The notes under the pieces: model-generated
What the model was told of the DNA's origin: nothing
The model's input: the letters and a program-made list of their open reading frames with translations, nothing else
Databases searched by the model: none
Assembly: GCF_029689945.1 (NCBI RefSeq)
Contig: NZ_CP121451.1
Location: forward strand, 2,170,001-2,234,000
DNA: 64,000 bases
Direction: 5' to 3'
From: Paenibacillus amylolyticus
GTDB taxonomy: Bacteria; Bacillota; Bacilli; Paenibacillales; Paenibacillaceae
Translations under genes and position numbers: made by a program
Shown: positions 38 to 63,231 of the stretch, piece by piece
How positions within the stretch are numbered: position 1 is the first letter of the stretch
Layout of the letters: the number at the start of each line of letters is the position of its first letter

Positions 38-1629
38 AGTGTTTTTGGTAGATGATGAACCGAGCATACGTGAGGGACTGACCACCATTATCGATTGGGA
101 AAAATATGGATTCCAGGTCATTGCTACAGCGGCAAGCGGGCGTGAGGCCATCTCCCGGTTTGAGGAATTGGAGCCTGATCTGACGATTATTGATATTCGC
201 ATGCCCGGCATGACCGGGCTGGACGTGATTGAAGAAGTGCGCCGGAATCATCCGGATTCGCACTTTTTGATATTGAGCGGTTATGCGGATTTTGATTATG
301 CCAAGAAAGCCATCAGTTTTGGTGTGGATGGTTACCTGCTCAAACCGGTGGATGAAGAAGAGATTATTGGTGAGCTGGAGCGGATTGCCACGATTTTGAA
401 CCGTGAACGGGAGACAACGGCCCGTCAAGCTGGGGAGGATACCGTCTATAGGGAACATCAGATTGAAGCTTTGCTCTTTGACAGTCTCGAGGGCGCGGGC
501 AGCATGGAAGAAGATAGCCTGGGGCTGCACTGGCCTCACTATCAGATTGTACTGCTTGAGGTGCATGCGGCCCCCGACCTGCAACGGGGAAGTGTAATGA
601 AACGCAAACTGATTGAAGCATATGACCAGAAAGACCGAGGCATCGTATTCTCGTTCCATTCCGGTCTGGGGCTGTTGATCAAGGAAACAATCACATCCGA
701 GTCATCTGCCAGAAATCTGTATGATGAGCTGGAAGGACTGCTGGGAGAATGGAACGTTCACATGTATGGTGCTGCAGGTGAACCCGTACATGCCACTTCT
801 GAAATTGTGCGGTCTTACACGCAGGCGAATCGTATCCTCGGTGAACGCTTCTTGTTCACGGAGCAACGCATCATGCTGTGGACTGAAGGTCGTGAAGGCG
901 AGGGCGTCGGTAAGTTAGAAGTTGAAGCTGAGGGCGGAGCACCACATGAGCCAGTTGAGGACGAACTTGCGGACAAGCTGTATTATGCGTTAGACATTCG
1001 CAGCAGTGAGTCAGTCATGCGGGTACTGGGGAGATGGAAGAGCGGCTGGTCCCGTATCACCGAACAGAGCAAGCGATCAAAACGGCCTTCTCTCAGGTAT
1101 TCTCCCTGGCGTTCAACAAGCTTGCAGCGACGAATCAACATATGCACTCCATCATGCAGGAGCATTCGGTTCTGATTAATGAAGTCTATCATCAATTGAC
1201 GATGTCTGATCTCAAAGACATGGCAGCGGAACATTTGAATCGACTTATTCAACGTATGGGTGGGGAAGCAAGGATACTGTATTGAAACAGATGATTGAAT
1301 TTATTCAGCGTAACCCTGGCGAAAATCTCAAGCTGGAGGTCCTTGCTGAAGTGTTTAACTATAACAGCAGTTACTTGGGTAAGTTGTTCAAGAATCATAC
1401 TGGAGAGTATTTCAATGCATTCCTGGACAAGGTTCGTATGGAAAAGGCCAAGGAATTGCTGGATGAAGGACTGAAGGTCCATCAGGTCGCGGCGAGAGTG
1501 GGGTATGCGAATGTGGACTACTTCCACGGTAAGTTCAAGAAATATGTAGGTGAATCTCCTTCCGCTTACAAACAGGCCAGAACCCAATCCTCGCCCAAAG
1601 GGACGGATGCGTTTACCAACGAGGAATAA
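30..1629 (+). CDS. YesN-type response regulator, receiver + AraC HTH (two frame breaks)
   Basis: This is the cytoplasmic DNA-binding half of a two-component system, likely controlling the adjoining sugar-uptake genes. Residues 1-120 form a CheY-like receiver with the acidic VDDE pair, the phospho-acceptor Asp in IIDIRMPG and Lys in LLKPVD. The C-terminal 100 residues form an AraC/XylS double helix-turn-helix (YLGKLFKNHTGEYF, then VGYANVDYFHGKFKKYVG). AGGAGGGG precedes the ATG. The reading frame breaks twice. At the G run 1028-1031 one extra G gives VLGEMEERLVPYH. At the G run 1262-1265 one extra G gives MGGGSKDTVLKQMIEF. Repaired length is about 533 residues, normal for YesN regulators. The family assignment is firm; the inducer is unknown. 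Confidence 0.9.
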
Positions 1630-1664
1630 TTAAGGAGTGCTGGGCTTTGCCCTTGTCTATTATA

Positions 1665-1678
1665 TAAAACGTTTTCTT
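1665..1678. promoter_or_regulatory. AAAACGTTTT palindromic operator-like site
   Basis: The palindrome AAAACGTTTT sits in the 175-base gap between the response regulator and the GH2 gene, in the context ATAAAACGTTTTCT. The same asymmetric context recurs in four more gaps of this locus. CG-centred palindromes like this are typical of LacI-family or CcpA binding sites. The identity of the regulator is inferred. Confidence 0.5.
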
Positions 1679-1804
1679 TATCTCTGCTAAATGTACAGAT
1701 TCATTATATTGTCCATGCACTTCCCATGATAAGCAATGGTCACGGAATGCTTCACATCTTAGACTGGACTTACAAGAATCCAGAGGAAGGGATGGCTATA
1801 CGTT

Positions 1805-4714
1805 ATGAAGCTGACTGATATAAGTGCTGTTCGTCATACATTGAACTTCAATGGAACATGGCAGTTTCGTTTGGATCCGGCGTCCGATGAACTCGTTGAA
1901 CAAGAGATAATACCGCCTTCACAGTGTGAAAATTCATCATGGGAGACCATTCAGATTCCCGGTTCATGGGAAGAGCAAGGATATGGAGATGAGCCTGAAT
2001 ACGAAAGGCTCGACACCTGGACCAAGGTTCGCGAGTATGAAGGCTCGGCCTGGTATGTTCAGGATGTTCAGATTCCATCAGACGATCCCGGATGCCACTA
2101 TGTATTCAGATTGGAAGGTGTCCGATGGACAACGAATCTCTGGATCAATGGAAAGTACGCCGGGCAGCGGGATAGTTTGGTGAATCAACAGAAGTGGGAT
2201 GTTACTTCTCTGGTGAAGCAGGGAGAAGTGAATCGGGTGGAGATTCACGTGAATAATACGATGAAACTCCCGCTGGCGGGTAGCCATATTCATTCACTGC
2301 ATACGGCCACAGCCTGGGTGGAGTTACCGGTGGCGTGTATCTGGACATTCTGCCCCCCGCCGATTAGAGACGTTACGGATACAACCTGATGCTGCAACTG
2401 GAATACTTCTGATTGATTATAGTGTAAGCGTTCCCGCTGATGATCCGGCCGCCAGATCAATGCAATTGCATGTGGATATCCAGCATCCAGACGGCACATG
2501 GCTTGATCGATATAGTTGTCATGTGAATCTGGGTGTTCAAGCCCATGTCGATGCAAGCTCAGAAGGGTTAAATGAAAGCAACGCTTTAATCGATCAGATA
2601 CGATTGGAACTTGGGACAGGGAAGTCCATTGCAAGATGGTCGGATGAAACTCCTGAATTATATAAGGCAGTAATCCGTCTGCATCACGGTGAACAGGAAC
2701 TGGATCGGCTGGAGCAATCCTTTGGTGTACGCTCGTTTGCAGCAAACGGGAAGCAGCTTGAATTGAATGGCATACCAGTATACCTGCGGGGATATGTTGA
2801 TTGCTGTATCTTTCCACTGACGGGTTATCCTGTGTGGGATAAGGAGCATTATCTTCAGCAGTTTCGAACTGCCAGATCCTACGGCTTCAACCATGTCCGG
2901 TTGCATGGGTGGAGTGCGCCTGAGCCTTTCTGGGACGCGGCTGATGAAGCTGGCATGCTGGTGCAGGCAGAACTTCCACATTGGTCTCGATTCTTTGAGC
3001 AATCGAATCAGTCTGCGCCAACTAAGGTATTGTCGTATCTGACACAAGAACTGGATGGGTTGCTCCAGTCGCTGCACAGACATCCTTCATTCGTCATGTT
3101 CTCCATGGGGAATGAACTTATTGGTGCCAATGGCCATCCTGAACTCAATGCCTTGGTATCGAGGGCAAGGGAAATGGACCCGACCCGTTTATATACGGAC
3201 AATACAGGTTTTGGACAGCTTCCGCCGCAAGGTAGGGAAGCGGATTATTATATCCAGTCGTTGAACTGGCATCCCCCGTTGAAATCGGCATATTCTGCTG
3301 TACCTGATACCACGCTGGATTATCATGCAGTCACCCGGCTTGCAGAGCATCCCGTTATTGGGCACGAACATGCCCAATACACAATGTATGTGCGGCCTCA
3401 AGAGCGAGCCAAGTATACCGGCGTATTGCGCCCTAGTTGGTTAAGGCCGATCGAAGAATCGTTGACAAACAAAGGCATGATTGCGGATCTGGAGCATTTT
3501 CAACAAGTCAGTGGTACCCATCTGGTCCGTTCCCTCAAAGAAGCCATGGAGCGGATTCGGCGAACACCGGATGCTGCGGGCGTACAACTGCTGGACATTC
3601 GCGATTTTCCAGGGCAGGGACATGCTACGACAGGCATTCTGGACGTATTTTGGGATGACAAAGGCATTACAACACCTGAGGAATTCATGCAGTTAAACTC
3701 CGATGTGGTGCTTTTGTTAAGCTGCAAGGAGCGTACATTCTACGCCGGAGAACCTATTCATGTCGATGTACGCATCTCTCACTACGGTAAAGATCCGCTT
3801 GAGGCCCAGTTTATACAGTGGAGGTTAATAAGCGATGATGTGATACTTACTGAAGGACAGTGGAAGACCCCAGATATTCCATGTGGGTCCGTCAAGTCAC
3901 TGGGAAGCATTGTCGCTACAGCACCCCAGGCAGGAGCAGCAGCATTTCGCATTGAAGCGGAGCTGCGGTCCGTCGATTCGGAGAGGCATGTAGCCAATGT
4001 ATGGCATGGCTGGTCGTTTCCTGTATATCAGTCTCATCCGAGTGCGAATCGCTTCTGGAATACCGTGACAGAGTTGCAGCCCTTCCTGGGTGAAGCGCAT
4101 CATGATTGCGTAGATCACATCGATGGATTCCGGTTGGTGAAAAATCGGAAGATTGACTTGGTTATCGTTCGGTCGTTAACACCCAATGTGGTTGATTATG
4201 TGGTCAACGGGGGAATGTTTGGCTACAGCCAACCGCAGAAGGGTTATATGATTCAGTGGAGACCAAGTATCTGCCTGTATTCTGGAATTACCTGATGTTT
4301 GCTACACAGCCTGGTGCAACAATGGGCATGTATCTGAGAGATCAGTTAGCACTCTTAGGCTCCTTCCCGCATGATGGGGCTTCAGATTGGCATTGGTATC
4401 ACTTGGTGAACGGTACGCCAGCCATATGTTTGGATACGTTGCCCGGGGTGGAACCGCTGATCGAAGTGGTGGATCATTTTCATCGGGCCAAACGGCTCGC
4501 TTATGCTTTTGAGGCAAACATAGGGAAGGGCAAGATTCTGGTATCCTCACTTCCATTTGCTAATCTGGCGTTAATGAAGCGTCCGGAAGTTGCCTACTTG
4601 TTTCAGCAGATACTTGCGTATCTGAATGGGGATCAATTCCGTCCAGCAACCTCCATATCGGTAGCTCAATTGCTCGGGATCGTGAAACTGCAGACCATTC
4701 AATTTACATTGTAA
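1805..4714 (+). CDS. Glycoside hydrolase family 2 (beta-galactosidase/glucuronidase-like; three frame breaks)
   Basis: This is a predicted exo-acting beta-glycosidase. The N-terminal jelly-roll sugar-binding domain (NFNGTWQFRLDP, GSWEEQGYGDEPEY, WINGKYAG) is followed by an immunoglobulin-like domain and a TIM barrel. The barrel has RLHGWSAPEPFWDAADEAG, the acid/base region SMGNEL and a candidate nucleophile Glu in VIGHEHAQY. No signal peptide is seen, so it probably acts inside the cell on imported oligosaccharides. The frame breaks at G run 2316-2318 (repair gives TAWGGVTGGVYLDIL), at C run 2353-2358 (repair gives LPPRRLETLRIQPDA) and at G run 4209-4213 (repair gives VNGGNVWLQPTAEG). Repaired length is about 970 residues. 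Exact substrate cannot be read from sequence. Confidence 0.85.
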
Positions 4715-4991: not shown

Positions 4992-5974
4992 ATGGAAACG
5001 CTAACAAAAAAATCCGCTTCCGCGAAAAGAAGCAGTGACCCCAAACCGCCTTTAAAGAATCGGCGGAACGGAATTTGGGACAGAATGAAACAGCAGAAAT
5101 ATCTCTATCTCATGTCATTGCCATTCGTAGCTTGGGTTTTCGTATTTAACTATCTGCCACTATGGGGATGGACGATGGCTTTCCAAAATTATAAACCTGC
5201 CAGATCGTTTGGAGATCAGGAGTGGGTTGGTTTTAAACACTTTGTAGAGCTGTTCAGCGATGATCGTTTCTATCTGGTACTTCGGAATACGCTTGCAATG
5301 AGCTTGATGGGACTGGTTGTCGGTTTTATCGTACCGATATTCTTCGCTATTCTCTTGAATGAAATGAGAGGCATGTTCTTCAAGCGTGCCGTGCAAACGG
5401 TATCATATCTGCCTCACTTTGTATCCTGGGTCGTTGTTGCCGGATCATTACGAAGATGCTTTCTACGGATGGCGGTATTATCAATGATATTTTGGTAGGC
5501 CTGAACATTATAGACCAGCCGATCCAGTTCATGGCCAAGGGCAACCTGTTCTGGTACATTGTAACCGCTTCAGATATGTGGAAAGAAACCGGCTGGAATG
5601 CCATCATCTATCTCGCAGCAATTACAGGTATTGACCAAGAGCTGTATGAAGCTTCCCGTGTAGATGGAGCGAACCGCTGGAGACAGATGTGGCACATCAC
5701 GCTGCCTGGCATACGGACCACGATTTCCGTACTTTTCATCATGTCCATTGGACATCTTATCAGTATCGGTTTCGAGAAGCAGTTCTTGCTCGGCAACAGT
5801 CTGGTCACAGACTACTCGGAAGTCCTTGATCTATACGCGCTCAATTATGGTTTGAATATGGGACGATTCTCATATGGTACAGCCATAGGTATCTTCAACT
5901 CCGTTGTCAGTATCATCCTTCTGTTTACTGCGAACGGCTTGTTCAAAAAATTCACCAAAGAAAGCATCATGTAG
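4992..5974 (+). CDS. LplB/YtfB-type sugar ABC transporter permease (one frame break)
   Basis: This is an inner-membrane permease of a carbohydrate ABC importer, one of two partners forming the translocation channel. After a basic N-terminus it has six hydrophobic segments (for example YLYLMSLPFVAWVFVFNYLP). It carries the EAA loop that contacts the ATPase (YEASRVDGANRWRQMWHITLPGI). AGGAGGGGG precedes the ATG. The frame breaks near 5444. Restoring one A gives VVVAGIITKMLSTDGGIIND, and the repaired protein is about 327 residues, normal for LplB. It is followed 15 bases later by its partner permease. No ATPase gene is present, as is usual for this class, which shares an MsmX-type ATPase encoded elsewhere. 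Confidence 0.9.
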
Positions 5975-7075: not shown

Positions 7076-8763
7076 ATGGCAAGTTCCAAAATGAAGATTG
7101 CACTGGCTCCAGTGCTTGCGATGTCATTGCTCGCAGGTTGTGGCGGTGGAAGCGGCAGTGATACGTCCTTTAAAGATACAAGTTCAGAGACTACTCCACT
7201 TACATTTGATTTCTTTAGTGTGGATCCCAGTCCGAACTGGAATGGGATGAAGGATGAAGTGGGTAAAGTCATTACAGAAAAAACAGGCGTAACGCTTAAC
7301 GGTGAATTTGCCGTTAGTGGTGGTCAGGATAAAATCTCCTTAATGGCAGCGAGCGGAGACTATCCGGATATCGTGTCACCCAAAGGAGAACTTAGCAAAC
7401 TGGTGGATGCCGGGGCAATGCTTGATCTAACGGAACTGATTGATCAATATGCTCCCAATCTGAAGAAGCTATATGGTAATTACATGGACCGGTTGAAATA
7501 CAGTAATGAGGATCAGGCTATTTATGTGCTGCCGACGTATTATGCAGTAGACCAGAAGTACTTTGATGCAGGTGGCGGATTTGGTATTCAGCACCGTGTA
7601 CTGAAAGAACTCGGATACCCGGAAGTGCGTACACTTCAGGATTACGAGAATGTATTGAAAGCTTACAAAGAGAAACACCCAACGATTGATGGTCAGCCAA
7701 CCATCCCGTTAACGCTGGATGCGGATGATTGGAGAATCATGATTACCGTTACGAATCCGGCCTTCCAGGCAACAGGCGCACCGGACGACGGTGAGTACTA
7801 TATCGATCCAGAGACGTATGAAGCACGTCTGCACTACAAACGTCCAGAGGAAAAGGAGTACTTCCGCTGGTTGAACCATATGTACAATGAGGGACTGCTT
7901 GATCAGGACAGCTTTATCCAGAAAACTGATCAATACAAATCCAAAATTGCAAGTGGGCGTGTTCTTGGTGTCATTGACCAGGATTGGGGATATTCCGATG
8001 CAGAAAATGCATTGAAATCCGCGGGCAAGTCTGAAGCAACCTATTCTCACTTCCCGGTGACCCTGTCCGAAGATATCAAGGACCAAACCTTCCAGGATCC
8101 TGGTTTTGTATCCGGTTGGGGTGTAGGAATCACAACGACGAATCCGGATCCGGTTCGTACGATCAAATTCTTCGATTACCTGGCTTCTGATGAGGGGCAA
8201 GTTCTGATGAACTGGGGAATTGAAGGTAAACAGTATGAAGTGAAGGACGGCAAACGTGTCATTCCTGCCGACATTCAAGACCAGAAGACCAATAATGCAG
8301 CCGTATTCCAGAAAGAAACGGGTGTAGGACTGTATACCAATATCTCTGGTCACTATGGAGACGGTGTGAAGGACTCAACAGATAATTACTATACTACGAA
8401 TTTCCCTGAACAGATTGTGGCGGCATATTCCGATGCAGAGAAAGAAACACTCAAAGCTTACGGCGCTACAACGTGGAAAGATCTGTTCCCTAATGAAGAT
8501 GAGTTCCCAATCAAACCATGGGGCAAGCTTACAATCTGCCAACACCAGGTGACTCTAACTATAACGTGATCTTCAAGAAAACACAGGATATTATCCGAAA
8601 ACGTATCCCGGAAGCCATTCTGAGTACTCCTGAACAATTCGATGTGATCTATGACGGCATGATTGCAGAAGTGAACCAGGCAGGCGCTGAGGATATGGAG
8701 AAACAATATACAGAGCTCGTACAAAACCGTGTTCAATTGTGGAGCGGTGAAGAGGCTAAGTAA
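7076..8763 (+). CDS. LplA-type sugar-binding lipoprotein 1 (one frame break)
   Basis: This is the extracellular solute-binding component of the carbohydrate importer, tethered by a lipid anchor. The signal peptide ends in the lipobox LLAGC at about residue 22. The rest matches LplA-like proteins and the two paralogs downstream (MAASGDYPDIVSPKGELSKL, TIDGQPTIPLTL, KIASGRVLGVID). The frame breaks at G run 8520-8523. One extra G gives KPWGQAYNLPTPGDSNYNV. The repaired length of about 562 residues matches the paralogs (566 and 565). By eye it is the most divergent of the three. It follows the permeases without an obvious promoter, so it is probably part of their transcript. Confidence 0.92.
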
Positions 8764-31317: not shown

Positions 31318-31469
31318 ATTAGAATTCCGTTTCTGCATAGGGCATTTGTCGTTACGCGGGCAGGTCTTGTGGACATGATGTGGGCTTTTCGTTCTAGTGT
31401 ATGCAAAAGCAACAGCTTTTGATGCCGGAGGGACTAACCTTTTTGCAGAACCCGGGGGAGGAACTATAC

Positions 31470-38239: not shown

Positions 38240-38956
38240 TTGAATGAACATAAGGAGTATGCAAGACCACATATCACCTTGTCGATGATTGTTCGTAATG
38301 AAGAGAATCGTTATCTCAAGCAGGCTTTGGAGACACATCGCCCCTGGATTGATCGGGCGGTAATCATTGATGACGGAAGCACGGATGGAACGGTTGCGAT
38401 GTGTCGGGAACTTCTGGACGGTATCCCACTCGTCTTGGTGGAGAACGCCGCTTCACGTTTTGCAGACGAGGTGAGTCTAAGGAAACAACAATGGGAAGAG
38501 ACCGTGGCGACCGATCCGGAGTGGATTTTGAATCTGGATGCGGATGAGATTCTAACCAGTGACTTTGGGGTGTTACGGGATCTGCTGCTTGGTGGCAATG
38601 AAGATGTGATCTATCTCAGATTGTTTGACATGTGGAGTGAGACGCATTACCGGGAAGATGAGTTCTGGCAGGCCCATGCCTATTATCGGCCATTTCTGAT
38701 TCGGTATCACCCGGGAGTGAGTTACGAGTGGAAAGAAACACCCCAGCATTGTGGGCGTTTTCCGTTAACGATCCAGCACTGGTCTTATGGATGTCATGCT
38801 CCTCGGGTGAAACATTATGGCTGGGCGCGTGAAGAAGACCGCATCCGCAAATATGATCGCTATCAAGCACTGGACCCTGAAGCAAGATACGGCTGGAAGG
38901 AACAGTACGAATCGATATTGGATCAAGAGCCGCGACTGCTGGAATGGCTCGAATAA
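38240..38956 (+). CDS. Glycosyltransferase family 2 protein
   Basis: This is a 238-residue GT-A-fold glycosyltransferase. It has the start SMIVRNEENRYLKQAL, the nucleotide-binding IIDDGSTDGT and the DXD-type motif NLDADE. The C-terminal HWSYG and RYQALDPEARYG regions are typical of small GT2 enzymes in Paenibacillus. The acceptor is unknown. The start at 38240 has GGGGGTGAAGC upstream. It is followed 10 bases later by a larger two-domain glycosyltransferase gene, suggesting an operon. Confidence 0.85.
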   Translation: MNEHKEYARPHITLSMIVRNEENRYLKQALETHRPWIDRAVIIDDGSTDGTVAMCRELLDGIPLVLVENAASRFADEVSLRKQQWEETVATDPEWILNLDADEILTSDFGVLRDLLLGGNEDVIYLRLFDMWSETHYREDEFWQAHAYYRPFLIRYHPGVSYEWKETPQHCGRFPLTIQHWSYGCHAPRVKHYGWAREEDRIRKYDRYQALDPEARYGWKEQYESILDQEPRLLEWLE

Positions 38957-38966
38957 GGAGAGGAGA

Positions 38967-43183: not shown

Positions 43184-43340
43184 GCTTTTATGAGCAATAT
43201 GCAGAAATTCACATTTGTAAAATTGCCCGGAAAACGACGATTAAAAAGGAAGCTTATGGTATCATAGAATAGACTGGCAATATTCATGCGAGGTTATTTG
43301 TTATGCTTCTTTGTATGAAATTGAAGGGAGAGGTCCAGAT

Positions 43341-45733
43341 TTGAGTTTGAATTGGAAGTTTAATGTACGCATCAAAATGTTCGCCACCAAAGCAACAACT
43401 GCAGCGATGGCAACACTGCTGCTTGCTTCGCAAACACCAGGTTTTGCAGGCAGTGCATCAGCCGCGCAAGCAGAGCAGGTGAACGAAGCGACAACGGGGA
43501 AAACGATCAACTAGACGCAACCAGCAATGACGTGCCGGAGGGAGCGAAAATCTCATCCAGGCAAGCCAGCGAGAATATACTTAAATTATTTCCATTGTTA
43601 AAAAAAGCAACGATCTCATCTGCACGATTCGATTCAACTAATTCCTATCCACCGCCAGACTACAAGGCATGGGAGATTGGATTCCAGATTACACAAGGCA
43701 ATCATACATCAGGATTTAGTGCAACTGTACATGCAGGCACAGGGGAAGTGTTAAGTGTACATTTGCCATCGGATATTATGGATAAACATGTCTCGGAATC
43801 GGATGTGAAGCTAACCAAAGCTGAGGCCGAAGAAAAGGCCGTGGCATTGTTGTACCAAGCAATTCCGGGTCTTAAGGACAAGGAATATGCTCCACTTGGA
43901 GATGTGTATTCTTCGATCGAACAACAGTCATTGTTTGGCAGAACAGAGTATCGATATGCTTACCAGTTAAAGCATGACGGGTTGTTATCTGATGCAGAGA
44001 CCGTCTACATCAATGTGGACGAAAGTGGTTTGGTAACAGGGTACTCGCGAGGGACTACCGCAGCCAAGTATCCTTCATCGAAACCGGGAGCTTCAGAAGA
44101 GAAGGCCAGACAGCAGTTTGAAGAACAGTTCGATGTGGAACTGGCTTATATCTCCAAAGATCGTCTGTCTTCCAAACAGGGTCAGCAGTACTACCTTGGA
44201 TATACACCGAAAGAGATCAGTATCGTTCCAATTGAAGCCAATACATTGGAACGGATTAATACATTAACAGGTAAAGCTGTAGATGAGAACTCTTTACAGC
44301 AGGATACGAAGTTGAAAGGCGATGTGACTCCTTTTGTCCCGGCCACGGGTACGCGATTAAATGTTCAGCAGGCCGCCAATCGGGTTGCAACGAACTTTGA
44401 TATTCCCAAGGGTTATAAGCTGGAACATAGCCAGTTGAGCAAGGGAAATTACTGGGGTCCGAACAATCAGGTATGGAGTCTGAGCTGGAGCGATCGAAGT
44501 GCCAATATGTCCTATATGTTTATGCGGGATATCTCAGCACAGGTCGATGCAGTTACTGGACAGATCTACAGCTATACGATGATGCAACGAATGGGACAGG
44601 AGTTGGAACAGGAGAAGCCGGCTGTAGAGAAGGAAGGAAGCACCGTAACGCGGAAGCAGGCAGAGAAACTCGCGATGAATACGGTCATTGCGTTAGTTCC
44701 AGATGCAACGGAGCAGTTCCGACTTGCCAACGTTATTGAGGTAGACGATGCACGTACATTTATGTTCCAGCGTTATCTGAACGGAATTCTGGTCAAGGAT
44801 GATACCGCACAAGTGCAGGTGCTGAACAACGGTACGATTAACGAGTTCTATACGCGTATTGCGGCAACGCCTGAACAACTGCCGGCAGATGTTAAGCCAG
44901 CCATCAGTTATGAAGAGGCCAAGGCAATCTATCTGGAGGAGTTCAAGCTGATTCTGGCGTATTCTCGTTACGGTGGATGGGGTATGAATAGCGGTGAAGT
45001 CATCCCGGTGGGAGTTAAGCTAGCTTATATGCCTACACGTGATGAGAATTCAATCTATGGCAACTATGAAGCGCTGGATGCGAACACAGGAAAGTGGACG
45101 CCTTTATATGGAGACACCAGCTCTGCAACCAAGGCTGAACCTACGGATATCTTGGGTCATGTAGCCGAAGCAGCTCTCCGCAGTATGACACAGCACGGTG
45201 TATTGCTTGCCGATGAGCAGGGACGTGTATTCCCGGATCGTGTGATTACTCGTGGAGATTGGTTTAACTATCTGGCAAGAGCGATTAATCCAAATATGGA
45301 TCTGTACTACAGTGGGGACGGAGAAGACAAGCTATACGCTGATGTGACGCCTGATAGTCCGTATTATAAGGCAATCAAGGTGTTAATCGATCAACGCTGG
45401 CTTGCCGGAGCGGACCCTGAACAGAATCTGAATCCGCAGGAAGAGATGACACGTGAAGAATTGGCCGTGCTGCTTGTGCGTATATTACGCTATGAGAAGC
45501 TGGCCGGATTCTACACGTTGCCATCCGACCTTCCCAATATCGCGGATGCCAGTGCCATCTCGAGTAAAGGGGCTGTTTCCCTGAGTTTGAAGCTGGGATT
45601 GCTTCCTTCGATTGAAGGGCGATTCATGCCTGCTCGCAAAGTGACCGTAGCTGAAGCGTCACAGGTATTGGAACGGCTGGCGAAGCTTCAAGGCAAGACA
45701 GATACGTTTATGAGCGGTAATCGTCTGTATTAG
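43341..45733 (+). CDS. Secreted YcdB/YcdC-domain protein with SLH domains (one frame break)
   Basis: This is a predicted cell-envelope protein. The start is TTG at 43341, seven bases after GGGAGAGG. A signal peptide follows (FATKATTAAMATLLLASQ, cleavage near ASAAQA). The middle contains repeated PepSY/YcdB-like modules (TKAEAEEKAVALLYQ, TRKQAEKLAMNTV, ISYEEAKAIYLEEF). The C-terminal 200 residues contain S-layer homology modules (FPDRVITRGDWFNYLARAI, LNPQEEMTREELAVLLVRIL, FMPARKVTVAEASQVLERL) that bind cell-wall polymers. The frame breaks at G run 43496-43499. One extra G gives ATTGENDQLDATSNDVPEG. Repaired length is about 797 residues. Its function beyond wall attachment is unknown. Confidence 0.85.
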
Positions 45734-47094: not shown

Positions 47095-47212
47095 GCGTTC
47101 AATTCGGGATCAAGGCCGAGGGTTTATGCGTTGTCTATTTTTTGTATATGTCGCTTTGCTATTCTAATCTTCGGCGTATGCCAACACTACGTACGAGGAG
47201 GATGTGCAAAAA

Positions 47213-50200
47213 ATGAGGAAAAAAGTGAGCATAGTGATCATTGCTTTATTGCTGGTCACGCAAATGATGCAGGGTTGGATATTTACACCAACGATGCATG
47301 CTCAGGATGAATTAACTAATTTGCCAGCCAGTGCAATGAGTGATACAGCGGTAGAAGATGGTTCGGCAGGTTCGGGAGAAGTGACAGAAGATCCTGCCAT
47401 TCCGGAAGAAGATGAGGATGTCAGTACTCCGGAAGATCAGGATGCCAGTACTCCAGAAGATCAGGAGGAAAATACGATGCATCTGCTTGGTGCAGCTGCA
47501 GGTCCGGTCATTACAGATCAGTTGATTACCAGTGTGCAGATGTACAATCAGGCACCGCAAGACAATGGAAATGGAACGATTGAAATCAGAGGCGATAAAA
47601 TTGAGGATATTCGTCCACGCATTCAGGATGAGGTGGCTGTTGTCTTTACATGGGGACTTGCAAATGACACCCACAACTACAGCGATGGTTCCACGTACAC
47701 CTTCCATTTGCCCGATAAATTCATCATAGGATCACAGCTTAAAGGCGATCTGGATGGCGGTGTTGGGGAGTATGTGGTGAATCCAGATGGCACAATCATG
47801 TTTACCTTTAATGAACTGATTGAGCATGCGCAGCTGGAAGGCAACTTCTATGTGTGGATTAAGTTCGATGAGAGCAAGATGGACGATGGCTTGAAACAAC
47901 AGATAGATTTTAGTTCCGTGGGACAGGGCATCATTGATGTGCATTTTGCCAACACAGCCATAGATAAGTTGAAGAAATCGGGAAGCGCGAACAAAAACAA
48001 CTTCAACTCAGATGAAATTAAGTGGACCGTAGACTTTAACCAGGGTGAGAAGGCATTGAAAAATGCGGTCCTTACAGATACTTTTCCAGCAAATCTGGAA
48101 CTCAAGGGAAATATCGAAATTCGTGAATTGGAAGTGCAATTGAATGGATCTGTAAAAGAAGGTCCGGTAGTTCAAACGGAACCACAGTTTCCCATTCAAT
48201 TGGGAGACACCGATAAGGCCTATCGTGTAACCTATACAACGAGTGTTAAAGCACCAACGACTGCTCCGTTCACCAATGTGGAGTACCAAAACCAGGTGGC
48301 GCTTACAACGGATCAAAGCGAGCATAACGAGACGGATATTGGCCGAGTTCGTGTGAGTTTTAACGAGCCTTTGAACAAGTCAGGCCAAGATAGTGCGTAT
48401 GATCCGGTGACACAGACGATCACATGGAAAGTGCAATATAACTACAATCAGCAGGAAATCATGCAAGCGAATGCATGGATTGAAGACCGTTTTGATACAG
48501 CCAAACAGCAACTAATCAACAATTCCGTCAACGTGTACCAAGTGGACATTAATGCAAGCGGAGCGGCTTCGAATCGGACGTTAATCAATGCAAATGAGTA
48601 CACACTTGAAGCGCTGAATACAGGATTTGATGACGGCTTCAGATTGCATTTTAAGAACGACATTAACAAGGCCTATGAGATCGAATATGCTACACAATCC
48701 ATTCATCGTGTTTATACGAATGACACCGTTACGAACACAGTGAACATGTATGATGGCACTTCAAAAACAGGCCGGAAAGACATTCAGGAAGTCATTTTTG
48801 CAAAAAGTGTAAAAAGTGAAAACTTCAATACCAAAGAAATCGAGTGGCAGCTGGTTCTGAACCGTGATTTGCAGGACATGACGGATATCGTCATAACCGA
48901 CAATTACGAAGGCAGACACATGAAACTGATTCCGGGTAGTCTTAAGATTAGTGGTGTTAACAAGGACGACTTTGAACTGATTCCAGACCCGGCTGATCCA
49001 ACGTATGAAAAAGGATTCTCCGTTCGTCTGAAGGACGGCGTTACCATTAACACGCAACATGTCATTACCTATACAACGAGCTTTGACCCGACGGCAGGTA
49101 TGCCAACCGATAATGAATATCGCAACTCGGCCAAGATCGATTGGGAAGAGTCCAATGTAGCACAAACAGCGATTACCAAATCGGCTATGGTCAAACCACA
49201 GGAGTACACCATTCAAAATGGTAACAAGAAGGGTGAATACAGCGCCAAAGACAAAACGATCACCTGGACCATTGATGTAAACTACAACTTGTTCGATATT
49301 CAGGAAGCCATCCTCAAGGATGCTTACACGGGTAACCAATCTTTTGTAGACGGTTCATTGAAGGTTCATGAGCTGGTGTTGCAGGGAGAAATAATGTTAC
49401 CGCAATCGGTGGCGAGGTTGCACTGACAGATGGACAATTCCAACTGAACGCGGACGGTAAAGGTTTTGTATTGGATCTGGGTAACATCGGCAAAGCAGCT
49501 TATCGCATTCAGTATCAAACGAGCCTGGATGGACCTTACTCCGTGGAAGGCACGTATGCCAACCAAGCTGTACTAACCGACGGTGAGGGCGGTGAAGAGC
49601 GCTTTAACAGATCAGCGAGCGTCACGCCAGCACACGGTGGTGTGTATGTACAAAAAACAGGTCAACAGATCGGTACAACGGATAAAGCATCATGGACGGT
49701 AAATATCAATCCAAGTCAATCTTATGTTCCAGCGGGTACTCCATTAACAGATACCTTGTCGGAGAACCAAATTTTATTGGCCGATTCATTGAAATTATAT
49801 GCAACGAACCTGCCTGCCAACAATTCAGGCAATGTATCCAACAAAGCTGGACTGGTTGATCCGGCGGATTATGAATTGATCGTGGAAGGCAATACATTTA
49901 CCCTCACATTCAATAAAGATATCCATACGGCATTCATTCTGGAATATCAGTCCTATATTAATGCCGATCATGGCGCTCGAATTGAGAATAAAGTTGAATT
50001 CGCAGGTCAGTCTTCCTCAGTGGTAGGCGAAGGCAATCAGGTGGGTATCAAAGTTTCATTGGCTGGAGCGGGTGGAGGAGCCTCCACAGGTCTGGGCAAG
50101 ATTAGAATTCACAAAGTCAGTGATACAGGACTTCCACTGGAAGGTGCCATCTTCGCAATATATAATGCGTCTGGAACTACGCTCCTGGAAACATTGAAAC

Positions 50201-51758
50201 CAACGGATGAGAACGGAGTAGTCGAAAGCTCCAGAAACTATCGCTTGAACAATCTGACGAACGGTGTACCTTATAAGTTAAAAGAATTGTCTGCACCGGC
50301 AGGATACTTGATTGATCCCGAGTATGGTTCTGCCTCAGGTCAAACGATTGAATTCAAGGATGCAGATATCGCCTTTGAAGTTGAGAATAAAAAGATTCGT
50401 CAAGGCTTCGAATTAACCAAGGTAGATGCGGTGGACTCCTCCAAGAAACTCCAGGGTGCAACGTTTGAACTGTACTTGAACAATGGCGCAACCCGAGAGA
50501 AATTAGACGAGTTAACGACAGGGGAAGATGGGAAAATCGCCAAGGGGATCTCTTGCCTGGAGATTATGAATTGGTCGAAGTTGTGGCACCCGAGTTTTAT
50601 CAGTTGGATGCTACCCCGATCCCGTTCACCATTGCAGAGAATCAGACTCAGATTATTACACTGACGAAGTCGAATGCAAGGGGTACGGGTGGTAAACTTG
50701 TCGTTACCAAAGTCAATGCCAAGGATCAGTCCGTATTAAGTGGAATTGAATTCGAATTGCGTGATGGTTCCAATGCAATCATGGATACAAAAGTAACGGA
50801 TCTGAACGGGGTCATTGAATTTGATGGATTAACCTATGGTCCATATACATTAGTAGAGACCAAGGCAGAGGGCTTTGTTATAGAACAGCCGGAGACGCTG
50901 GTATCTATTATCCAACCTGAAACTCAATTGACCATTGAGAATAAAGAAAATAATCGTTCCGTGAAATTGATAAAATATAATGCGGGACGAACTCAACATT
51001 TACAAGGTGCAGTGTTTGAATTACGGGCTCAGACTGCATTGATGGATGCAAACGGGAATTGGGAGTTCCGGAAGGTAACAGGTCTGGATGAAGCTGCACT
51101 GACAACCAATCAACAAGGTGAAATTATACTTGAAGACCTGGATATCAATCAATATCAGTTGGTTGAAATAAAAGCACCTAACGGATATGTCTTAGACACA
51201 ACACCCATACCATTTGAAATTACGAATACACAAACCGAAGCCGTAGTTGTTGAAAAAACGAATCAGGCTATTCCGGTATCGGGCGGTGGATCAAGTGGAC
51301 CTTATAATCCGGGAACACCTAATACAGGTGTAACTCCAGATCCGGAGAAACCAGTAACACCGGGACCGGAAACACCAGGAACGTCTGTCCCAGGCACAGT
51401 GGTTACCGAACCTACTGAACCTGAAGACGGAACCGATATTCCAACAGATGAAGATAACGGAGTAGCTCCTCCTTCACCTGGCGTCTCCAACGGTGACGAC
51501 ACTGCACCTCCAATTGGGGATACAGATGCACCAGATGGGGATAGTGCATTGGCACCCCCTGCTGGAACGGATACAGATGGATCACTTGCAAATGGCAATG
51601 CTGTATCACAGCAGACCGGAAGCTCTGCATCACAGGGCATGCTGCCGAAGACAGGCGAAGAGAGCACATTGGCTTTCACGGTTACAGGCATGATGCTGAT
51701 GGCATTGGGCAGTCTGGGATACGTCTACTTCCGACGTAGGCAACTGCTTCAGCGCTAG
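47213..51758 (+). CDS. Giant LPXTG cell-wall-anchored adhesin with collagen-binding-like and Cna-B domains (two frame breaks)
   Basis: This is a surface protein covalently attached by sortase, about 1515 residues once repaired. A signal peptide (VSIVIIALLLVTQMMQGW) precedes an acidic linker with TPEDQ repeats. Many MSCRAMM-like beta domains follow (KWTVDFNQGEKALKNAVLTD, ITWKVQYNYNQQEI). From about residue 960 four SpaA/Cna-B modules occur (GLPLEGAIFAIYN, KLQGATFELYL, VLSGIEFELRDG, HLQGAVFELRA). A Pro/Gly-rich wall-spanning region leads to LPKTGEE, a hydrophobic helix and RRRQLLQR. The frame breaks at A run 49389-49391 (repair gives LQGENNVTAIGGEVAL) and at G run 50544-50547 (repair gives IAKGDLLPGDYELVE). 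The ATG at 47213 is 11 bases after AGGAGG. A sortase gene converges on it. Confidence 0.9.
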
Positions 51759-51793
51759 ATCACAGCAGGTCATGCACGAAAAGATATTCACAT

Positions 51794-51860: not shown

Positions 51861-51891
51861 TTAGTTTATTTCTGCTGAGCCTGAGGGAAGA

Positions 51892-52531
51892 TCAGAATCC
51901 GGCAACCTCCGGATTCACCTCAACAGCTCTTACAATTAGCCGATGTGTTGGATTGATGAGTGGATCACAGGTAATTAAGGTAAGGACCTGCCCTAGTCCG
52001 GGATCTTCCAGCACAGATAAGTCATTAGGCTCCACAACGGATATTTGATCTACCTTATATTGAATGATCGTTCGATCTGCCAAGGTGACTTCCATTGAAT
52101 CGCCAATCTGTAATTCTCCCAGACGATTGAACAGTCGTCCTTTTTGTGGGAGCGATGGGCGGCTATGGCGGCGTTACCTTTATTCCCAATCTTAGTGGTT
52201 TCGACAAGATGGGTTGCAGCTACCTTCATGTTGTTCTCCGTTGCACCCTCCAAAATCGGTAAGCGGACATCAATCTTGTCAATGGAGAGTACCCCAACAT
52301 ATCCGAAGATTCGCCTTGCACTATATCTGTATTGTCAGTAGTTGGCTCGGCGGAAGCTGTATCCTGTATGCCTTGTTCGAAGGCGTGATTCAGCTTGGAC
52401 AAGCCGTCTTGCAATTGCTCCAGATCGTTCATCACACGGGTTTGCTGCCAGTCATAATATGTGTCCCGCAGGAAAGGAAAGCTGATGATCAGCATGCCCA
52501 GCAGAATGAGCAGGATAGAGAATTTTTTCAT
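51892..52531 (-). CDS. Sortase, class D-like (two frame breaks)
   Basis: This is a membrane-anchored transpeptidase that attaches LPXTG proteins to peptidoglycan. The N-terminal anchor is FSILLILLGMLIISFPFL. The catalytic residues are His in AAHRSHKKGRLF, Cys in LTLITCDP and Arg in HRLIVRAVEV. Substrate-side strands read IDVRLPILEGATENNM. The frame breaks near 52303-52305 (repair gives ESSGYVGVLSIDK) and near 52139-52140 (repair gives HKKGRLFNRLGEL). Repaired length is about 213 residues, normal for class D sortases. It converges on the LPXTG protein gene, its likely substrate. Confidence 0.9.
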
Positions 52532-52816: not shown

Positions 52817-54297
52817 TTAGTGCTTATCAGCTGGTGCATCGGTAGGTGTGAAATCACATTCCTTCAGTGGCACCACTTTGGTCTTTTTGATCCATTTGTA
52901 ACCGAGCCACAACACCAGGAACAGGGGTAAGCTCAGGTAGGCAACGATGGCTCCACTCCAGTCGATCGTGTCACCTGTAAATGCCTGATAGTTCTGCCCA
53001 ATGATTACGATAATACACAGAACAAAAGCAAAGATCGGCCCAAACGGGAACCAACGTGCACGGTAAGGGAGATCGTTCAAGTCCCTGCCTTGTGCGACGT
53101 ATGCACGACGGAAGCGATAGTGACTGATCGCGATGCCCAGCCAAGTGATAAATCCGCACATACCGGATGCATTCAGCAACCAGGTATAGACAATGCCATC
53201 GCCGAAAAGGGAGGCAAGAAATGCCAGCATGCCAACGGCTGTTGTCACCAGCAAGGCATTCATCGGAATGCCTTTTTTGTTCAGCTTGCCGAGGAAACGG
53301 GGAGCCTTACCATCTCGGGCAAGGGCGTAGAGAACCCGGCTTGAAGCATACATACCTGAGTTACCAGCAGAGAGCACGGAAGTTAGAATAACCGCGTTCA
53401 TGACGGAAGCCGCAATGGCGAGTCCTGCTTTTTCAAACACCAGTGTGAACGGGCTGACACCGATATTTTCCAGATCTCCTTTGAGCAGATTCGGATGAGT
53501 ATACGGGATGATCAGACTGATCACAGTAATCGCCAAAATGTAAAAAATCAGAATACGCCAAAATACCTGACGAATGGCACGAGGCACATTTTCACGCGGA
53601 TTTTCGCTCTCGCCAGCGGCTACCCCGATCAGTTCGGTACCCTGGAATGAGAATCCGCAGCCATGAACACACCTAACACGGCGAAGAATCCGCCATGGAT
53701 GGGTGCATCACCGATGGTGAAGTTGCTGAAACCAACGGCTTCTCCACCCATAATCCCGAAGATCATGAGCACACCAACGGCCAGGAAGATAATTACGGTA
53801 GCTACCTTGATAATGGCGAACCAGTATTCGGATTCCCCGTAGCCTTTGACAGACAGGACGTTCAAGGCAAAGATCAGTACGAGGAAAAGTAAGCTCCATA
53901 ACATGGATGAACTGTCGGGGAACCAGTATTTAATAAGGACTGTAGCGGCAGCAAGCTCTGCTGCAATGGTTACCGCCCAGTTGTACCAGAAGTTCCAGCC
54001 CATCGCGAACCCGAGCGCAGGATCGACAAAACGTGCGGCATACGTATTAAATGAACCGGAGTCCGGCATAAAGGTAGCAAGCTCACCAAGGCTGGTCATG
54101 AGGAAATAGACCATGATGCCAACGGCCGCATAGGCAATTAATGCTCCACCAGGGCCTGCGGTTGAGATGGCGGTACCACTTGCGAGAAACAGCCCGGTAC
54201 CAATTGAGCCACCGAGGGCGATCATCGTCATATGGCGAGCGCGTAAGCCTTTTTTCAGAGAAGGTCCAGTTGTTGCTCGGTTACTGCGGTCTTGCAT
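52817..54297 (-). CDS. lysP: AAT-family amino acid permease, probably lysine-specific (one frame break)
   Basis: This is a proton-coupled amino acid importer with 12 predicted membrane spans, about 493 residues when repaired. It starts with LKKGLRARHMTMIALGGSIG TGLF, the family signature. It has GELATFMPDSGSFNTYAARF, SVLSAGNSGMYASSRVLYAL and KGIPMNALLVTT. The frame breaks at C2 53655-53656 on the + strand. One extra base gives FMAAGFSFQGTELIGVAAGE. AGGAGTG precedes the ATG. A lysine riboswitch with terminator lies directly upstream, which makes lysine the likely substrate. The gene symbol rests on that. Confidence 0.85.
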
Positions 54298-54382: not shown

Positions 54383-54454
54383 AACATTTCAATGTCCGCA
54401 CCATGTCCCAGATGATTAAGATAGCTCAACACAGAAGAATTCATACCTTTGAAT

Positions 54455-54779: not shown

Positions 54780-55921
54780 CTATTCCTCTTTCTTGTTGCG
54801 GCCAGCCATCTGCTGCCATACCGTTCCGGCAGCCTGTTCACCCGATTCGATTCGCTCCAGAGCCATCTTGGCTTGCAGGCTGACTTCGAATTCGGGATCA
54901 TCCGCTGCAACACGCAACGCTTGCTCTGCTTCCTCAGTTCCGACCTCATAGAGAAAACGTGCCGCACGCCAGCGTACAAGCTTACTTTTATCGGACAACG
55001 TGGCTGTCATCGCTGGCGTGGCTGCGGGTCACCGATGTCGGACAAGGTGTCACCAGCAGTACGGCGTACTGCAGGAGAACTGTCCTGAAGCGCTTCATAC
55101 AGCAGCTCCATCGCTTCCGGTGTACGAATGTCACCCAGGTATACCACGGCCAAGCGACGTATCTGCATTTTGTTATCACGCAGGGCATGGGCTACGAGAG
55201 GCAGTCTTTCGGGTGTAGGCTCCATGCCGTCCAATGCCGCATAGCGAACATTCCAGTCCTCGCTCCGCAAAGCCTCTTCAAGCTCAGCTCCATCCAATTC
55301 GCGACGGCGCTCGACGAACTCTTCGGATTTGCTACCATGCTCAATGGCTTGTTGTATAACCTGCTCCAGTCGTTCCGGAGGGTAAGCTGCTTCCAATTCC
55401 TGCTCGACTTCACGTGCGATGTCCGGTAACTCGCCATATCGAACGCCGTAATCACTCAGTTTGCGTTCTTTGATCATCGTCGCACTGGCGACTTCCGTTA
55501 CGGCTTTGACAAAGCGGTCGGACAGTGAGATTCGTTCTTCTTTGGAACCGGCTTTGACCCTGATCTGCATGGGCACGCCTCGGAAGAACTGGACGAATAC
55601 CTGTGCTTCCCCAAAGTGTTCGCCTGAACCATCTTCGGATTCAATCCAGTCGAGATCGATGCCTTGTTGTCCAAGGCGATTTTGGACTTCGCCCAGGATA
55701 ACGGACCAGTCGGCATTCCCTTTACGATCAAGTGCCACAAAGTCTGTCGTGTGGAACACACTCTTTACACCGGGAATATGAAGCATCTGGCGAATGAACG
55801 CCGGAGCGGATCGTTCGTTGTCCAGTGTATATGTTTTGCGAATTCCGTCTTCCAGACGTTCATCGAGATGCAGCATCATCGTATTTGGACTGGGTGTTGG
55901 TTCAATGGATACAATATTCAT
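54780..55921 (-). CDS. CvfC-like protein: Nfu N-terminal domain + HEAT repeats (one frame break)
   Basis: This resembles the conserved virulence factor C family of Firmicutes. Residues 1-90 form an NifU/Nfu N-terminal-like domain (PTPSPNTMMLHLDERL, GVKSVFHTTDFVALDRKG). Residues about 215-380 are HEAT-like repeats (EEALRSEDWNVRYAALDGM, LALRDNKMQIRRLAVVYLGD-type units, EALQDSSPAVRRTAGDTLSD). The frame breaks at G run 55026-55028 on the + strand. One extra base gives IGDPAATPAMTATLSDKSK, and the repaired protein is about 380 residues. GAGGTT precedes the ATG. Its biochemical role is not established. Confidence 0.82.
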
Positions 55922-56167: not shown

Positions 56168-56586
56168 ATGGAACCCATTACCGTGCTCTCGGATGGAAAA
56201 CGTCGTATTGCATATGAGAATATTATTCAAATGTTCAGAAACTGGATTGAGGACTCAACTTCTGGTTCTGTGATAGAACACACCGGGGAAGTTGGGAAAA
56301 CTCCCGTTATTGTATTGTTGATTATCAGATAGCCGAAGAAGCGGTGTCAGCAGCAAACGCCATTCGTGCCTTTATGCCGCAGATTCCGTTACTTGTCATT
56401 ACGGATTTCCAATCTCTTATTCGGAAGCGTCACCTGCAACAGATTACAGGTACTGGAGAGTTGAAGCTGATTCTCTGGAGTGAGCAAGAACCGGATCATC
56501 TCATCAAGGATATGGAACATTGGTTGCATTCGTCGTCTGCCCATAAATCACAAATAGCCATACCGCCCATCTTATCCATGAGATAA
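56168..56586 (+). CDS. Unknown protein with a receiver-like segment (one frame break)
   Basis: This is a short gene of about 139 residues starting at ATG 56168, eight bases after GGAGG (an in-frame ATG at 56162 is an alternative). The frame breaks at C run 56303-56305. One extra C gives VGKTPRYCIVDYQIAEEAVS. The second half (CIVDYQIAEEA, PQIPLLVITDFQSLIRK, LKLILWSEQEP) looks like a degenerate response-regulator receiver fold lacking most of the acidic pocket. It sits beside the divergent two-component pair, converging on the regulator gene. No family recognised. Confidence 0.55.
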
Positions 56587-60688: not shown

Positions 60689-60793
60689 ATGTTCCGTAAA
60701 CAAGAGAAAACACTCATCATTGTCTGTCTGGTTGCAGCTGTGGTGGTACTGTATGCCGTTGTGAAAAGCATCATCCGAATCATGAGTTATTGA
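60689..60793 (+). CDS. 34-residue single-span membrane protein upstream of cydA
   Basis: ATG at 60689 follows AAGGAGGACGGAAGGA, a very strong ribosome binding region. The product is a short basic start (MFRKQEKT), one hydrophobic helix (LIIVCLVAAVVVLYAVV) and KSIIRIMSY. It ends 64 bases before cydA. Small single-helix proteins accompany many cytochrome bd oxidases, so a bd-related role is possible. It does not look like the CydS sequence found downstream, and I do not recognise the family. Confidence 0.6.
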   Translation: MFRKQEKTLIIVCLVAAVVVLYAVVKSIIRIMSY

Positions 60794-60857
60794 GATACAC
60801 GTTCAATCAGAGGAACTGCTGTTGTACATAACGATTATGTGAAAGAGGAGTGTAACC

Positions 60858-62203
60858 ATGTCATCCCTGGACCCTGTTTTGCTCAGCCGGATATTAACCG
60901 GTCTTACCCTGTTTGTACACATTGTTTTTGCCTCTATTGGTGTAGGCGTTCCACTCATGATTGCCTTGGCCGAGTGGCGAGGACTGCGAACCAATGATAT
61001 GCATTACACCTTGCTGGCACGCCGTTGGGCGCGAGGTTTTGTCATTACCGTTGCCGTTGGCGTCGTCACAGGCACCTCGATCGGATTGCAGCTTAGTCTG
61101 CTGTGGCCGATGTTTATGCGGGTAGCAGGTCAGGCCATTGCCCTGCCGCTGTTCATGGAGACGTTTGCCTTTTTTATAGAGGCGATCTTTCTTGGCATTT
61201 ACCTCTATACGTGGGATCGTTTCAAAAAGAAATATACCCATATGCTGCTGTTGATTCCGGTAGCTCTCGGCTCATCTGCGTCTGCGATTTTCATTACGAC
61301 GGTGAACTCCTTCATGAACCAGCCTCAGGGATTCACCCTGATTAACGGCATCATGAAGGACATTCATCCGATTGCTGCCATGCTGAATCCGGCGACGCCA
61401 ACCAAGGTGTCTCATGTGCTGGCTTCATCCTACACCCTGAGTGCAGGTATCCTGGCGGGGATAGCCGCCTTCAGTTTGCTGCGGGGACGGGATCATGTGT
61501 ATTACAAAAAAGCACTGAAACTCACGACAGTATCTGCGCTTGTATTTGCCATCAGTACCGTTATGATCGGCGACTCATCGGGTAAATTTCTGGCGAAATA
61601 TCAGCCGGAGAAGCTGGCGGCCGCAGAATGGCATTTCAAGACGATGAAAGAGGCACCGCTCGTGTACGGCGGCATTCTGGATGAGAACAATGAAGTGAAA
61701 TATGCGATAGAGATTCCTTATGCACTCAGCATTTTGGCGGGCAATCGTCCCGATACGGAAGTGAAAGGTCTCGAAGAATTTCCTGCGGATCTGAGGCCAC
61801 CATTGTCCATACATTATATGTTCGACCTGAAGGTCACAACCGGAGTGATTATCCTGATGATTCCTGTGTTATATGTGCTGCGGCGGTGGTTGCCAGGGCG
61901 CAAGCCATATCCCAAATGGCTGTTGCTTGGCATTGTCCTGCTGGGGCCACTGGCCATGATTGCCATCGAGCTGGGGTGGATGTTCGCCGAAGTGGGCCGG
62001 AGCCTTGGATCTTGCGCGGGTATATGAAGGTGTCGGAAGCAGCCACGACATCCACTTCTGTGGGATGGATGCTGGTGTTGTTTATTTTGCTGTATCTGAT
62101 CCTCTGTTTCTCTTGCATTCGGGTGCTCAGCAAGCTGTTCCGCAACAAGGAAGCAGAGAAGGAACTGGCATCTCTGGGGCTTGAAGGAGGGATTGTGCAT
62201 TGA
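60858..62203 (+). CDS. cydA: Cytochrome bd quinol oxidase subunit I CydA (one frame break)
   Basis: This is the heme-bearing subunit of a cytochrome bd-type quinol oxidase, an oxygen-scavenging terminal oxidase. Features are SRILTGLTLFVHIVFASIGV with the heme His, FAFFIEAIFLGIYLYTWDRF, HVLASSYTLSAGI and MFDLKVTTG. The repaired protein has about 448 residues and a short Q loop. The frame breaks at G2 61999-62000. Restoring one base gives the conserved EVGR(E/Q)PWILRGYMKV. A missing G gives GREPW and a missing C gives GRQPW. GAGGAG precedes the ATG. The stop codon overlaps the cydB start. Confidence 0.93.
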
Positions 62204-63231
62204 GCTTCGAAATTGCGGGCATTGCGATATTGTGGACGTTTTTGTTCGGTTACCTGATTGTCGCTTCGATTGATTTTGGCGCCGGGTTCTTCAGCTTTTA
62301 CAGCATACTGACCGGGCATGAGAACAAAATTCATAACATCATTCAGCGCTACCTGTCTCCCGTGTGGGAAGTGACGAATGTGTTTCTGATCTTCTTTGTG
62401 GTTGGATTGGTCGGGTTTTATCCGGACAGTGCCTTTTATTACGGGACAGCTTTGCTGGTGCCGGGTTCTCTGGCCATTGTCCTGCTTGCCATCCGGGGGT
62501 GTATTACGCCTACAATACCTATGGCAATCATGGGCAGAACAGCCGGATCTACATGGCATTGTACGGAGCGACGGGACTGCTGATTCCGGCGGTATTCTCC
62601 ACCATTTTGGCGATATCCGAAGGTGGGATCATTGAGCAGGTGGGGAACAGGTGTTTTTTCGCTGGCGTGAATTTTTGACGAATCCCTATACCTGGTCGGT
62701 TGTTTTGCTTGCACTGGTCAGTGTGCTGTACATCTCGGCGATGTTTCTTTCCTATTATGCCAAGCGGGCAGGCGATGAGCCGGCATTTGAGGTGCTTCGG
62801 GAGTATGCACTGCTGTGGAGCTTGCCCACCATTTTTGCGAGTTTTCTGGCATTTCTGCAGATTAACAAACAGAATCCCGCACATTTTGAGCAGATGGTGA
62901 ATATTTCATGGATGTTCATTGCTTCATTTATCTGTTTTGTCATTGCGGTGTCGTTGGTGTGGAAACGCAAATATCTGGGCTGGTGTTTTATCGCTGTCAT
63001 GCTTCAGTTTGCCTTCGCCTGGTATGGTTACGGACGGTCTCACCTTCCGTATATCCTGTATCCCTATATTAATATTTACGACAGCTTTACGAATCGTACC
63101 ATGGGAATTGCGCTGATTACGGCGTTCAGCCTGGGCTGCTCGTGCTCATTCCGTCGCTTGTGCTGATTATGAAGCTGTTCCTGTTCGATGCCAATTATGT
63201 GCGCGGTAATTCCGGTAAAAAGAAAGGATGA
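62200..63231 (+). CDS. cydB: Cytochrome bd quinol oxidase subunit II CydB (three frame breaks)
   Basis: This is the second membrane subunit of the bd oxidase. TTG at 62200 overlaps the cydA stop, eight bases after AGGAGG. It has about nine hydrophobic spans, starting with ILWTFLFGYLIVASIDFGAG. The frame breaks at G run 62495-62499 (repair gives AIRGVYYAYNTYGNHG), G2 62650-62651 (repair gives EQVGNRVFFRWREFLT) and G run 63133-63135 (repair gives AFSLGLLVLIPSLVLI). Repaired length is about 344 residues and it ends in NSGKKKG. Three breaks in one kilobase is the highest density in the window. Confidence 0.92.

What the first reader, a model, noticed from the sequence alone, without database searches (positions are those of the whole stretch)
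1028..63135. About 25 single-base losses at short homopolymers split 17 genes
Every broken frame can be repaired by adding exactly one base, never by removing one. Most repairs fall in a G or C run (for example 1028-1031, 2353-2358, 4209-4213, 8520-8523, 31760-31763, 37821-37824, 62495-62499), a few in A runs (25014-25019, 49389-49391). Repaired lengths match family norms, and sugar-binding protein 1 becomes the same length as its paralogs. Normally essential trxB and conserved cyoB, cydA and cydB are affected. The pattern is best explained by systematic under-calling of run length rather than decay. Anyone using this sequence would otherwise record about 17 false pseudogenes.
Basis: partly seen in the sequence, partly recalled or inferred. 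Interest (0 to 1): 0.75.

Follow-up and report, generated by a model that had tools for sequence, protein, structure and literature searches.

The report
False gene breaks from sequencing errors
Seventeen genes in this stretch of a Paenibacillus genome look broken only because the sequencing miscounted short runs of the same letter by one; the bacterium's genes are almost certainly intact, so this is a data error and not biology.

Summary
Against three relatives collinear with the window (8-9% DNA divergence), 17 of 42 conserved genes carry 26 window-only single-base losses, with no window-only single-base gain counted in coding sequence. The relatives carry 0, 0 and 2 such losses. The 17 genes show no in-frame stop at 9,242 aligned codons and otherwise only gains of 3, 12 or 24 bases. 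The loss rate climbs with run length: G/C runs of 3, 4, 5 and 6 are one short in 2/915, 4/190, 3/29 and 2/3 cases, A/T runs of 7 in 3/14; relatives stay near zero. The losses ignore function: elsewhere in this genome rpoB, the EF-Tu gene, rplA, gltX and pheS are hit, and all 12 16S rRNA copies lack one G that all 30 relative copies examined have. The excess is about 0.4 losses per kb, roughly 2,800 genome-wide if the sampled region is typical. Platform unknown; no reads available.

The parts
30..1629 (+). AraC-type response regulator gene, frame broken twice; intact in three relatives
1784..4714 (+). glycoside hydrolase family 2 gene, frame broken three times; intact in relatives (976 aa)
4992..5974 (+). 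ABC transporter permease-like gene (matches below curated cut-offs), broken once; intact in relatives (327 aa)
7076..8763 (+). sugar-binding protein 1 gene, broken once; 562 aa in G016, paralogs 565-567 aa
18768..20737 (+). heme-copper quinol/cytochrome oxidase subunit I gene, broken once; 656 aa in relatives
24641..25485 (+). xylose isomerase-like TIM barrel gene, broken once; 281 aa in relatives
31401..32410 (+). thioredoxin reductase gene trxB, broken once; 336 aa in relatives (TIGR01292 above cut-off)
36527..38018 (+). xylulokinase gene, broken twice; 497 aa in relatives (TIGR01312 above cut-off)
38944..41131 (+). glycosyltransferase-like gene (matches below cut-offs), broken once or twice (one site at the disputed start); 721-745 aa in relatives
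43311..45733 (+). gene with YcdB/YcdC and S-layer homology domains, broken once; 805-807 aa in relatives
47204..51758 (+). LPXTG-anchored protein with collagen-binding and SpaA domains, frame broken; intact copies in three relatives
51892..52531 (-). sortase gene (sortase family above cut-off, class C model below its cut-off), frame broken; intact copies in three relatives
52820..54297 (-). amino acid permease gene, broken once; 492-498 aa in relatives
54780..55921 (-). gene with HEAT repeats and Nfu N-terminal domain, broken once; 380-381 aa in relatives
56168..56586 (+). conserved 139-aa gene without a Pfam match at E 1e-5, broken once
60858..62203 (+). cydA, cytochrome bd oxidase subunit I, broken once; 448 aa in relatives
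62200..63231 (+). cydB, cytochrome bd oxidase subunit II, broken three times; 344 aa in relatives

Best explanation
The 17 broken genes are not broken in the organism. The record is an assembly whose consensus counts short runs of one base too low, mostly by a single base and mostly in G or C runs of about 4-6 and A or T runs of about 5-7. Each such miscount inside a gene shifts the reading frame and splits the ORF. Shown: the losses are private to this record among the four genomes, are almost all one base, rise steeply with run length, hit genes regardless of need, and are seen in multi-copy rRNA genes. Inferred: that the cause is base calling and consensus in a long-read assembly with little or no polishing (6.83 Mb in 3 contigs fits). 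The platform itself is not shown.
For: 17 of 42 conserved genes with 26 single-base losses and 0 counted gains in coding; relatives 0, 0, 2 losses. No in-frame stop at 9,242 aligned codons of the 17. Over 200 kb aligned around the window, 101 private single-base losses against 12, 20 and 28, and 92 against 7, 18 and 16 in well-conserved flanks. Run-length dependence with near-zero controls. rpoB split in this genome, 1188 aa open in all three relatives. Losses in the EF-Tu gene, rplA, gltX, pheS and ispD. In the essential-gene region, where substitution divergence is only 3.6-3.8%, still 28 private losses against 3, 5 and 6, so they do not follow constraint. All 12 16S copies lack a G that 30 of 30 relative copies examined have; the 23S copies differ from one another by single bases, several in C or G runs. 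Completeness 95.84 against 99-100 in the three relatives used. Named Paenibacillus records side with the relatives: of 7 sites tested (8 private gaps lie in the shared stretch; one non-coding was left out), the window is a base short at 7 of 7 against P. xylanexedens DE0301 and 6 of 7 against P. polymyxa ISL-58, whose alignment stops before the seventh. A published long-read bacterial assembly shows the same profile: the majority of indel errors false deletions, most after runs of 4-5 (PMC12007338, passages).
Against: No reads and no second assembly of this strain were available. The same G missing from all 12 16S copies could in principle be real. 40 of the 101 losses touch only runs of 1-2 as called, though a true run would be one longer and some 20 losses are expected as natural background from the relatives' counts. 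Broken genes have slightly less third-position bias than intact ones (1763/2367 = 0.745 against 1597/1989 = 0.803); the broken set includes fast-evolving surface and sugar genes, and both values show selection. Single-base gains are also somewhat raised (26 against 13, 9 and 10), so it is not purely a loss process.
Confidence: 0.97

Rival explanations
1. Real gene decay in a lineage that lost mismatch repair and so slips in runs of one base.
For: mutS, mutL and mutS2 carry private frame losses in this record, and mutators are known to slip at runs (recalled).
Against: rpoB, the EF-Tu gene, rplA, gltX, pheS and (by a gain) rplR are broken in the same record, which by general knowledge no living cell could bear. 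Losses outnumber gains (101 to 40 over 200 kb, relatives 12-28 to 14-21). Substitutions are not much raised: private changes at single G/C bases 583 here, 309, 437 and 550 in relatives, and at single A/T bases 495 against 172, 243 and 386. The 17 genes carry no in-frame stop at aligned codons.
Confidence: 0.02
2. Programmed frameshifting or phase variation at the runs, so that the split genes are regulated and not broken.
For: The sites are mostly runs of one base, the usual place for slippage (recalled).
Against: The three relatives have uninterrupted frames in the same genes; 17 unrelated genes plus core genes and rRNA are hit. Slippery-site motifs and downstream structures were not tested.
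Confidence: 0.01

Closest known systems
Homopolymer-length errors of long-read bacterial assemblies (gene-fragmenting errors as in Kastor, PMC12007338; Polypolish, PMC8812927)
   Same: Single-base false deletions dominate, sit at runs of one base and create false pseudogenes.
   Different: Nothing essential. G/C runs fail at shorter lengths than A/T runs here; platform and chemistry of this record are unknown.
True pseudogenes
   Same: Interrupted reading frames.
   Different: No mixed lesions in the 17 genes, only a small difference in third-position bias, and essential genes are hit elsewhere in the record.

Membership tests
homopolymer-length errors of a long-read assembly | single-base losses far exceed gains and exceed those of related genomes | tested here: met
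   (26 against 0; relatives 0, 0, 2)
homopolymer-length errors of a long-read assembly | rate rises with run length | tested here: met
homopolymer-length errors of a long-read assembly | indifferent to gene function, essential genes included | tested here: met
homopolymer-length errors of a long-read assembly | multi-copy conserved RNA genes show the same losses | tested here: met
   some 23S gaps may be natural variation between copies
homopolymer-length errors of a long-read assembly | accurate reads of the strain show the longer run | not testable with these tools
   no reads held
homopolymer-length errors of a long-read assembly | record was made from long reads | not testable with these tools
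   platform not given; 6.83 Mb in 3 contigs fits
true pseudogenes by decay | mixed lesions (frame-shifting gains, stops, larger deletions) in the same genes | tested here: not met
   in the 17 genes single-base losses only, no in-frame stop at 9,242 aligned codons, gains of 3, 12 or 24 bases only
true pseudogenes by decay | relaxed selection in broken genes | tested here: inconclusive
   third-position share 0.745 broken, 0.803 intact; both far above one third
mutator lineage | essential genes remain intact | tested here: not met
   (rpoB)
programmed frameshifting | slippery site with a stimulating structure, conserved in relatives | not tested
   relatives have continuous frames; motifs and structures were not examined

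The most novel reading that the evidence does not exclude
A few of the run-length breaks, most plausibly in the surface genes (LPXTG protein, sortase), are real and phase-variable in this strain, hidden among many false ones.
Probability: 0.04. Interest if true: 0.35.

Novelty: not a real feature. Interest (0 to 1): 0.15.

Why it matters
If this record stands for its species in reference sets, as the one-genome-per-species collection searched here suggests but does not state for this record, it would feed roughly 2,800 false single-base losses (extrapolated from 200 kb) into gene counts, pseudogene surveys and even 16S comparisons. The finding is ordinary as biology and useful as a warning: broken rpoB or EF-Tu frames are a quick test for such records.

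Tried and rejected
Exact-position agreement of gaps in three pairwise alignments found only 19 losses, because differences next to a run shift the gap; the four-way alignment was used instead. The first alignment of 23S loci was useless because loci on the minus strand had not been turned, and the first 16S script stopped with an error for the same reason; both were redone. A possible link of extra A's to the motif GCAGC was tested and dropped: 1 of 362 conserved sites shows it. The 'longest ORF' gene sets contain some shadow ORFs on the wrong strand (two of the ten tested gave no family match and overlap ribosomal genes), so only genes with a family match are named, from G011's own intact copies. 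first left the sortase gene out and counted two sites upstream of the sugar-binding protein's start as coding, with the ORF common to all relatives, is the count used (26 in both by coincidence). One literature search for Paenibacillus with nanopore, frameshift, homopolymer and pseudogenes gave one paper, on banana wilt biocontrol, not opened (listing and abstract start only). For PMC12007338 I saw the abstract start and passages; for PMC8812927 only the abstract start.

Full report
What was claimed.

Setting. The window is bases 2170001-2234000 of contig 1 of a 6.83-Mb genome in 3 contigs, estimated 95.84% complete. The three relatives used here score 99-100%. These three genomes of the same genus (G011, G022, G016) are collinear with the whole window at about 90-92% identity in the main blocks. 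Named neighbours of one gene are Paenibacillus (polymyxa ISL-58, xylanexedens DE0301).

Observation. Of 46 ORFs chosen in G011, many that are whole in the relatives fall into two or three overlapping frames in the window. In the four-way alignment the window has 41 private single-base gaps against 6, 6 and 11 in the relatives; gaps of unequal length among the others (5 in the window, 4 in each relative) were left out. Of the 46 ORFs, four were set aside (three not conserved at full length, one short and variable). Of the other 42, 17 are broken by 26 private single-base gaps, with no counted private single-base insertion; the relatives show 0, 0 and 2 gaps and no insertions. One gap sits at a disputed start, so 25 or 26. 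A private insertion at 21357 lies within 3 bases of the end of an unbroken gene and was not counted, and a 5-base one lies at the end of another. The 17 genes have no in-frame stop at 9,242 aligned codons, no private gap other than the single bases, and gains of 3, 3, 12 and 24 bases only.

Why it is an artefact. First, dose and response: where three genomes agree on a run and its flanks, the window genome's run is one short in 2 of 915 G/C runs of 3, 4 of 190 of 4, 3 of 29 of 5 and 2 of 3 of 6. For A/T it is 3 of 1848, 0 of 568, 6 of 180, 5 of 72 and 3 of 14 for lengths 3 to 7. The same count in each relative gives 0 or 1 per class for runs of 2 or more. Second, indifference to function: around rpoB and the ribosomal protein genes, where substitutions are only 3.6-3.8%, the record still has 28 private single-base gaps against 3, 5 and 6. 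rpoB is split into frames of 853 and 401 aa where all three relatives have 1188 aa. Private gaps also fall in rplA, gltX, ispD and the EF-Tu gene and in pheS, mutS, mutL and mutS2. Third, rRNA: all 12 16S copies lack one G of a run present in 30 of 30 relative copies examined (37 were found; loci were made for 30). The 12 23S copies differ from one another by single-base gaps, several in C or G runs. Two of those 23S gaps occur together in the same copies and may be real variation; 41 substitution columns show that the copies do vary. Fourth, named records side with the relatives. Seven of the eight private gaps in the shared stretch were looked up (two of the seven non-coding; the eighth, non-coding, was left out). 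The window is a base short at 7 of 7 against DE0301, 6 of 7 against ISL-58 (its alignment ends before the seventh), and 4, 2 and 7 of 7 against three more distant records. Of the first two of these three, the alignments miss 2 and 5 of the sites; one site within reach showed no gap against the first.

Scale. Over 200 kb aligned of a 274-kb stretch (74 kb set aside as not of similar length in all four), 101 private single-base gaps against 12, 20 and 28 give an excess of about 0.40 per kb, or about 2,800 in the genome if the stretch is typical.

Results against a pure 'loss in runs only' account. Private single-base insertions are 26 against 13, 9 and 10 in conserved flanks. One lies in rplR, whose two frames both match ribosomal protein L18, between L6 and S5; another lies in mutS2. 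Of the 101 losses, 40 touch only runs of 1-2 as called. In non-coding DNA of the window there are 15 private gaps while relatives have 5 to 10, so a fair share there is natural. Third-position bias is slightly lower in broken than in intact genes (0.745 and 0.803).

Rivals. A mismatch-repair mutator would be suggested by the broken mutS and mutL, but the same record breaks genes without which no cell grows, and substitutions are not much raised (private changes at single G/C bases 583 here, 309, 437 and 550 in relatives; at single A/T bases 495 against 172, 243 and 386). Programmed frameshifting does not fit open frames in the relatives; slippery motifs were not tested.

Known kind. Published work on a long-read bacterial assembly describes the same profile: mostly false deletions, most after runs of four to five bases, and a conservative bias in run length (PMC12007338, passages). 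Long-read-only assemblies most commonly keep homopolymer-length errors (PMC8812927, abstract start). Which platform made this record is not known.

Verdict. Not a biological feature.

Noticed in passing
L222 and L231 (23S genes at G000:C1:393267-396313 and 2016185-2019227): Two of 12 23S rRNA copies carry a 123-nt insertion near alignment column 1219. A 181-nt stretch of L231 around it folds into one long hairpin (z -5.26), like an intervening sequence of 23S rRNA (recalled).
   Followed up: partly
L115-L126 (the 12 16S genes of G000): All 12 16S copies share the same one-base shortfall in a G run that the 30 relative copies examined carry in full; a 16S sequence taken from this record would be wrong there if the artefact reading holds.
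   Followed up: yes
54414-54628: Lysine riboswitch aptamer on the minus strand before an amino acid permease gene; it contains one of the private single-base gaps.
   Followed up: partly
   Followed up: no
G000:C1:2066385-2109557: A 43-kb segment of similar length in G022 but absent from G011 and G016, possibly a mobile or lost island; contents not read.
   Followed up: no
47204-52531: An LPXTG-anchored protein with collagen-binding and SpaA domains next to a sortase closest to class C: a pilus-like or adhesin locus; described only.
   Followed up: no
L141:15847 (G000:C1:1995847): A single-base gain in rplR (both frames match ribosomal protein L18), one of two gains seen in family-matched genes outside the window; the other is in mutS2.
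   Followed up: partly
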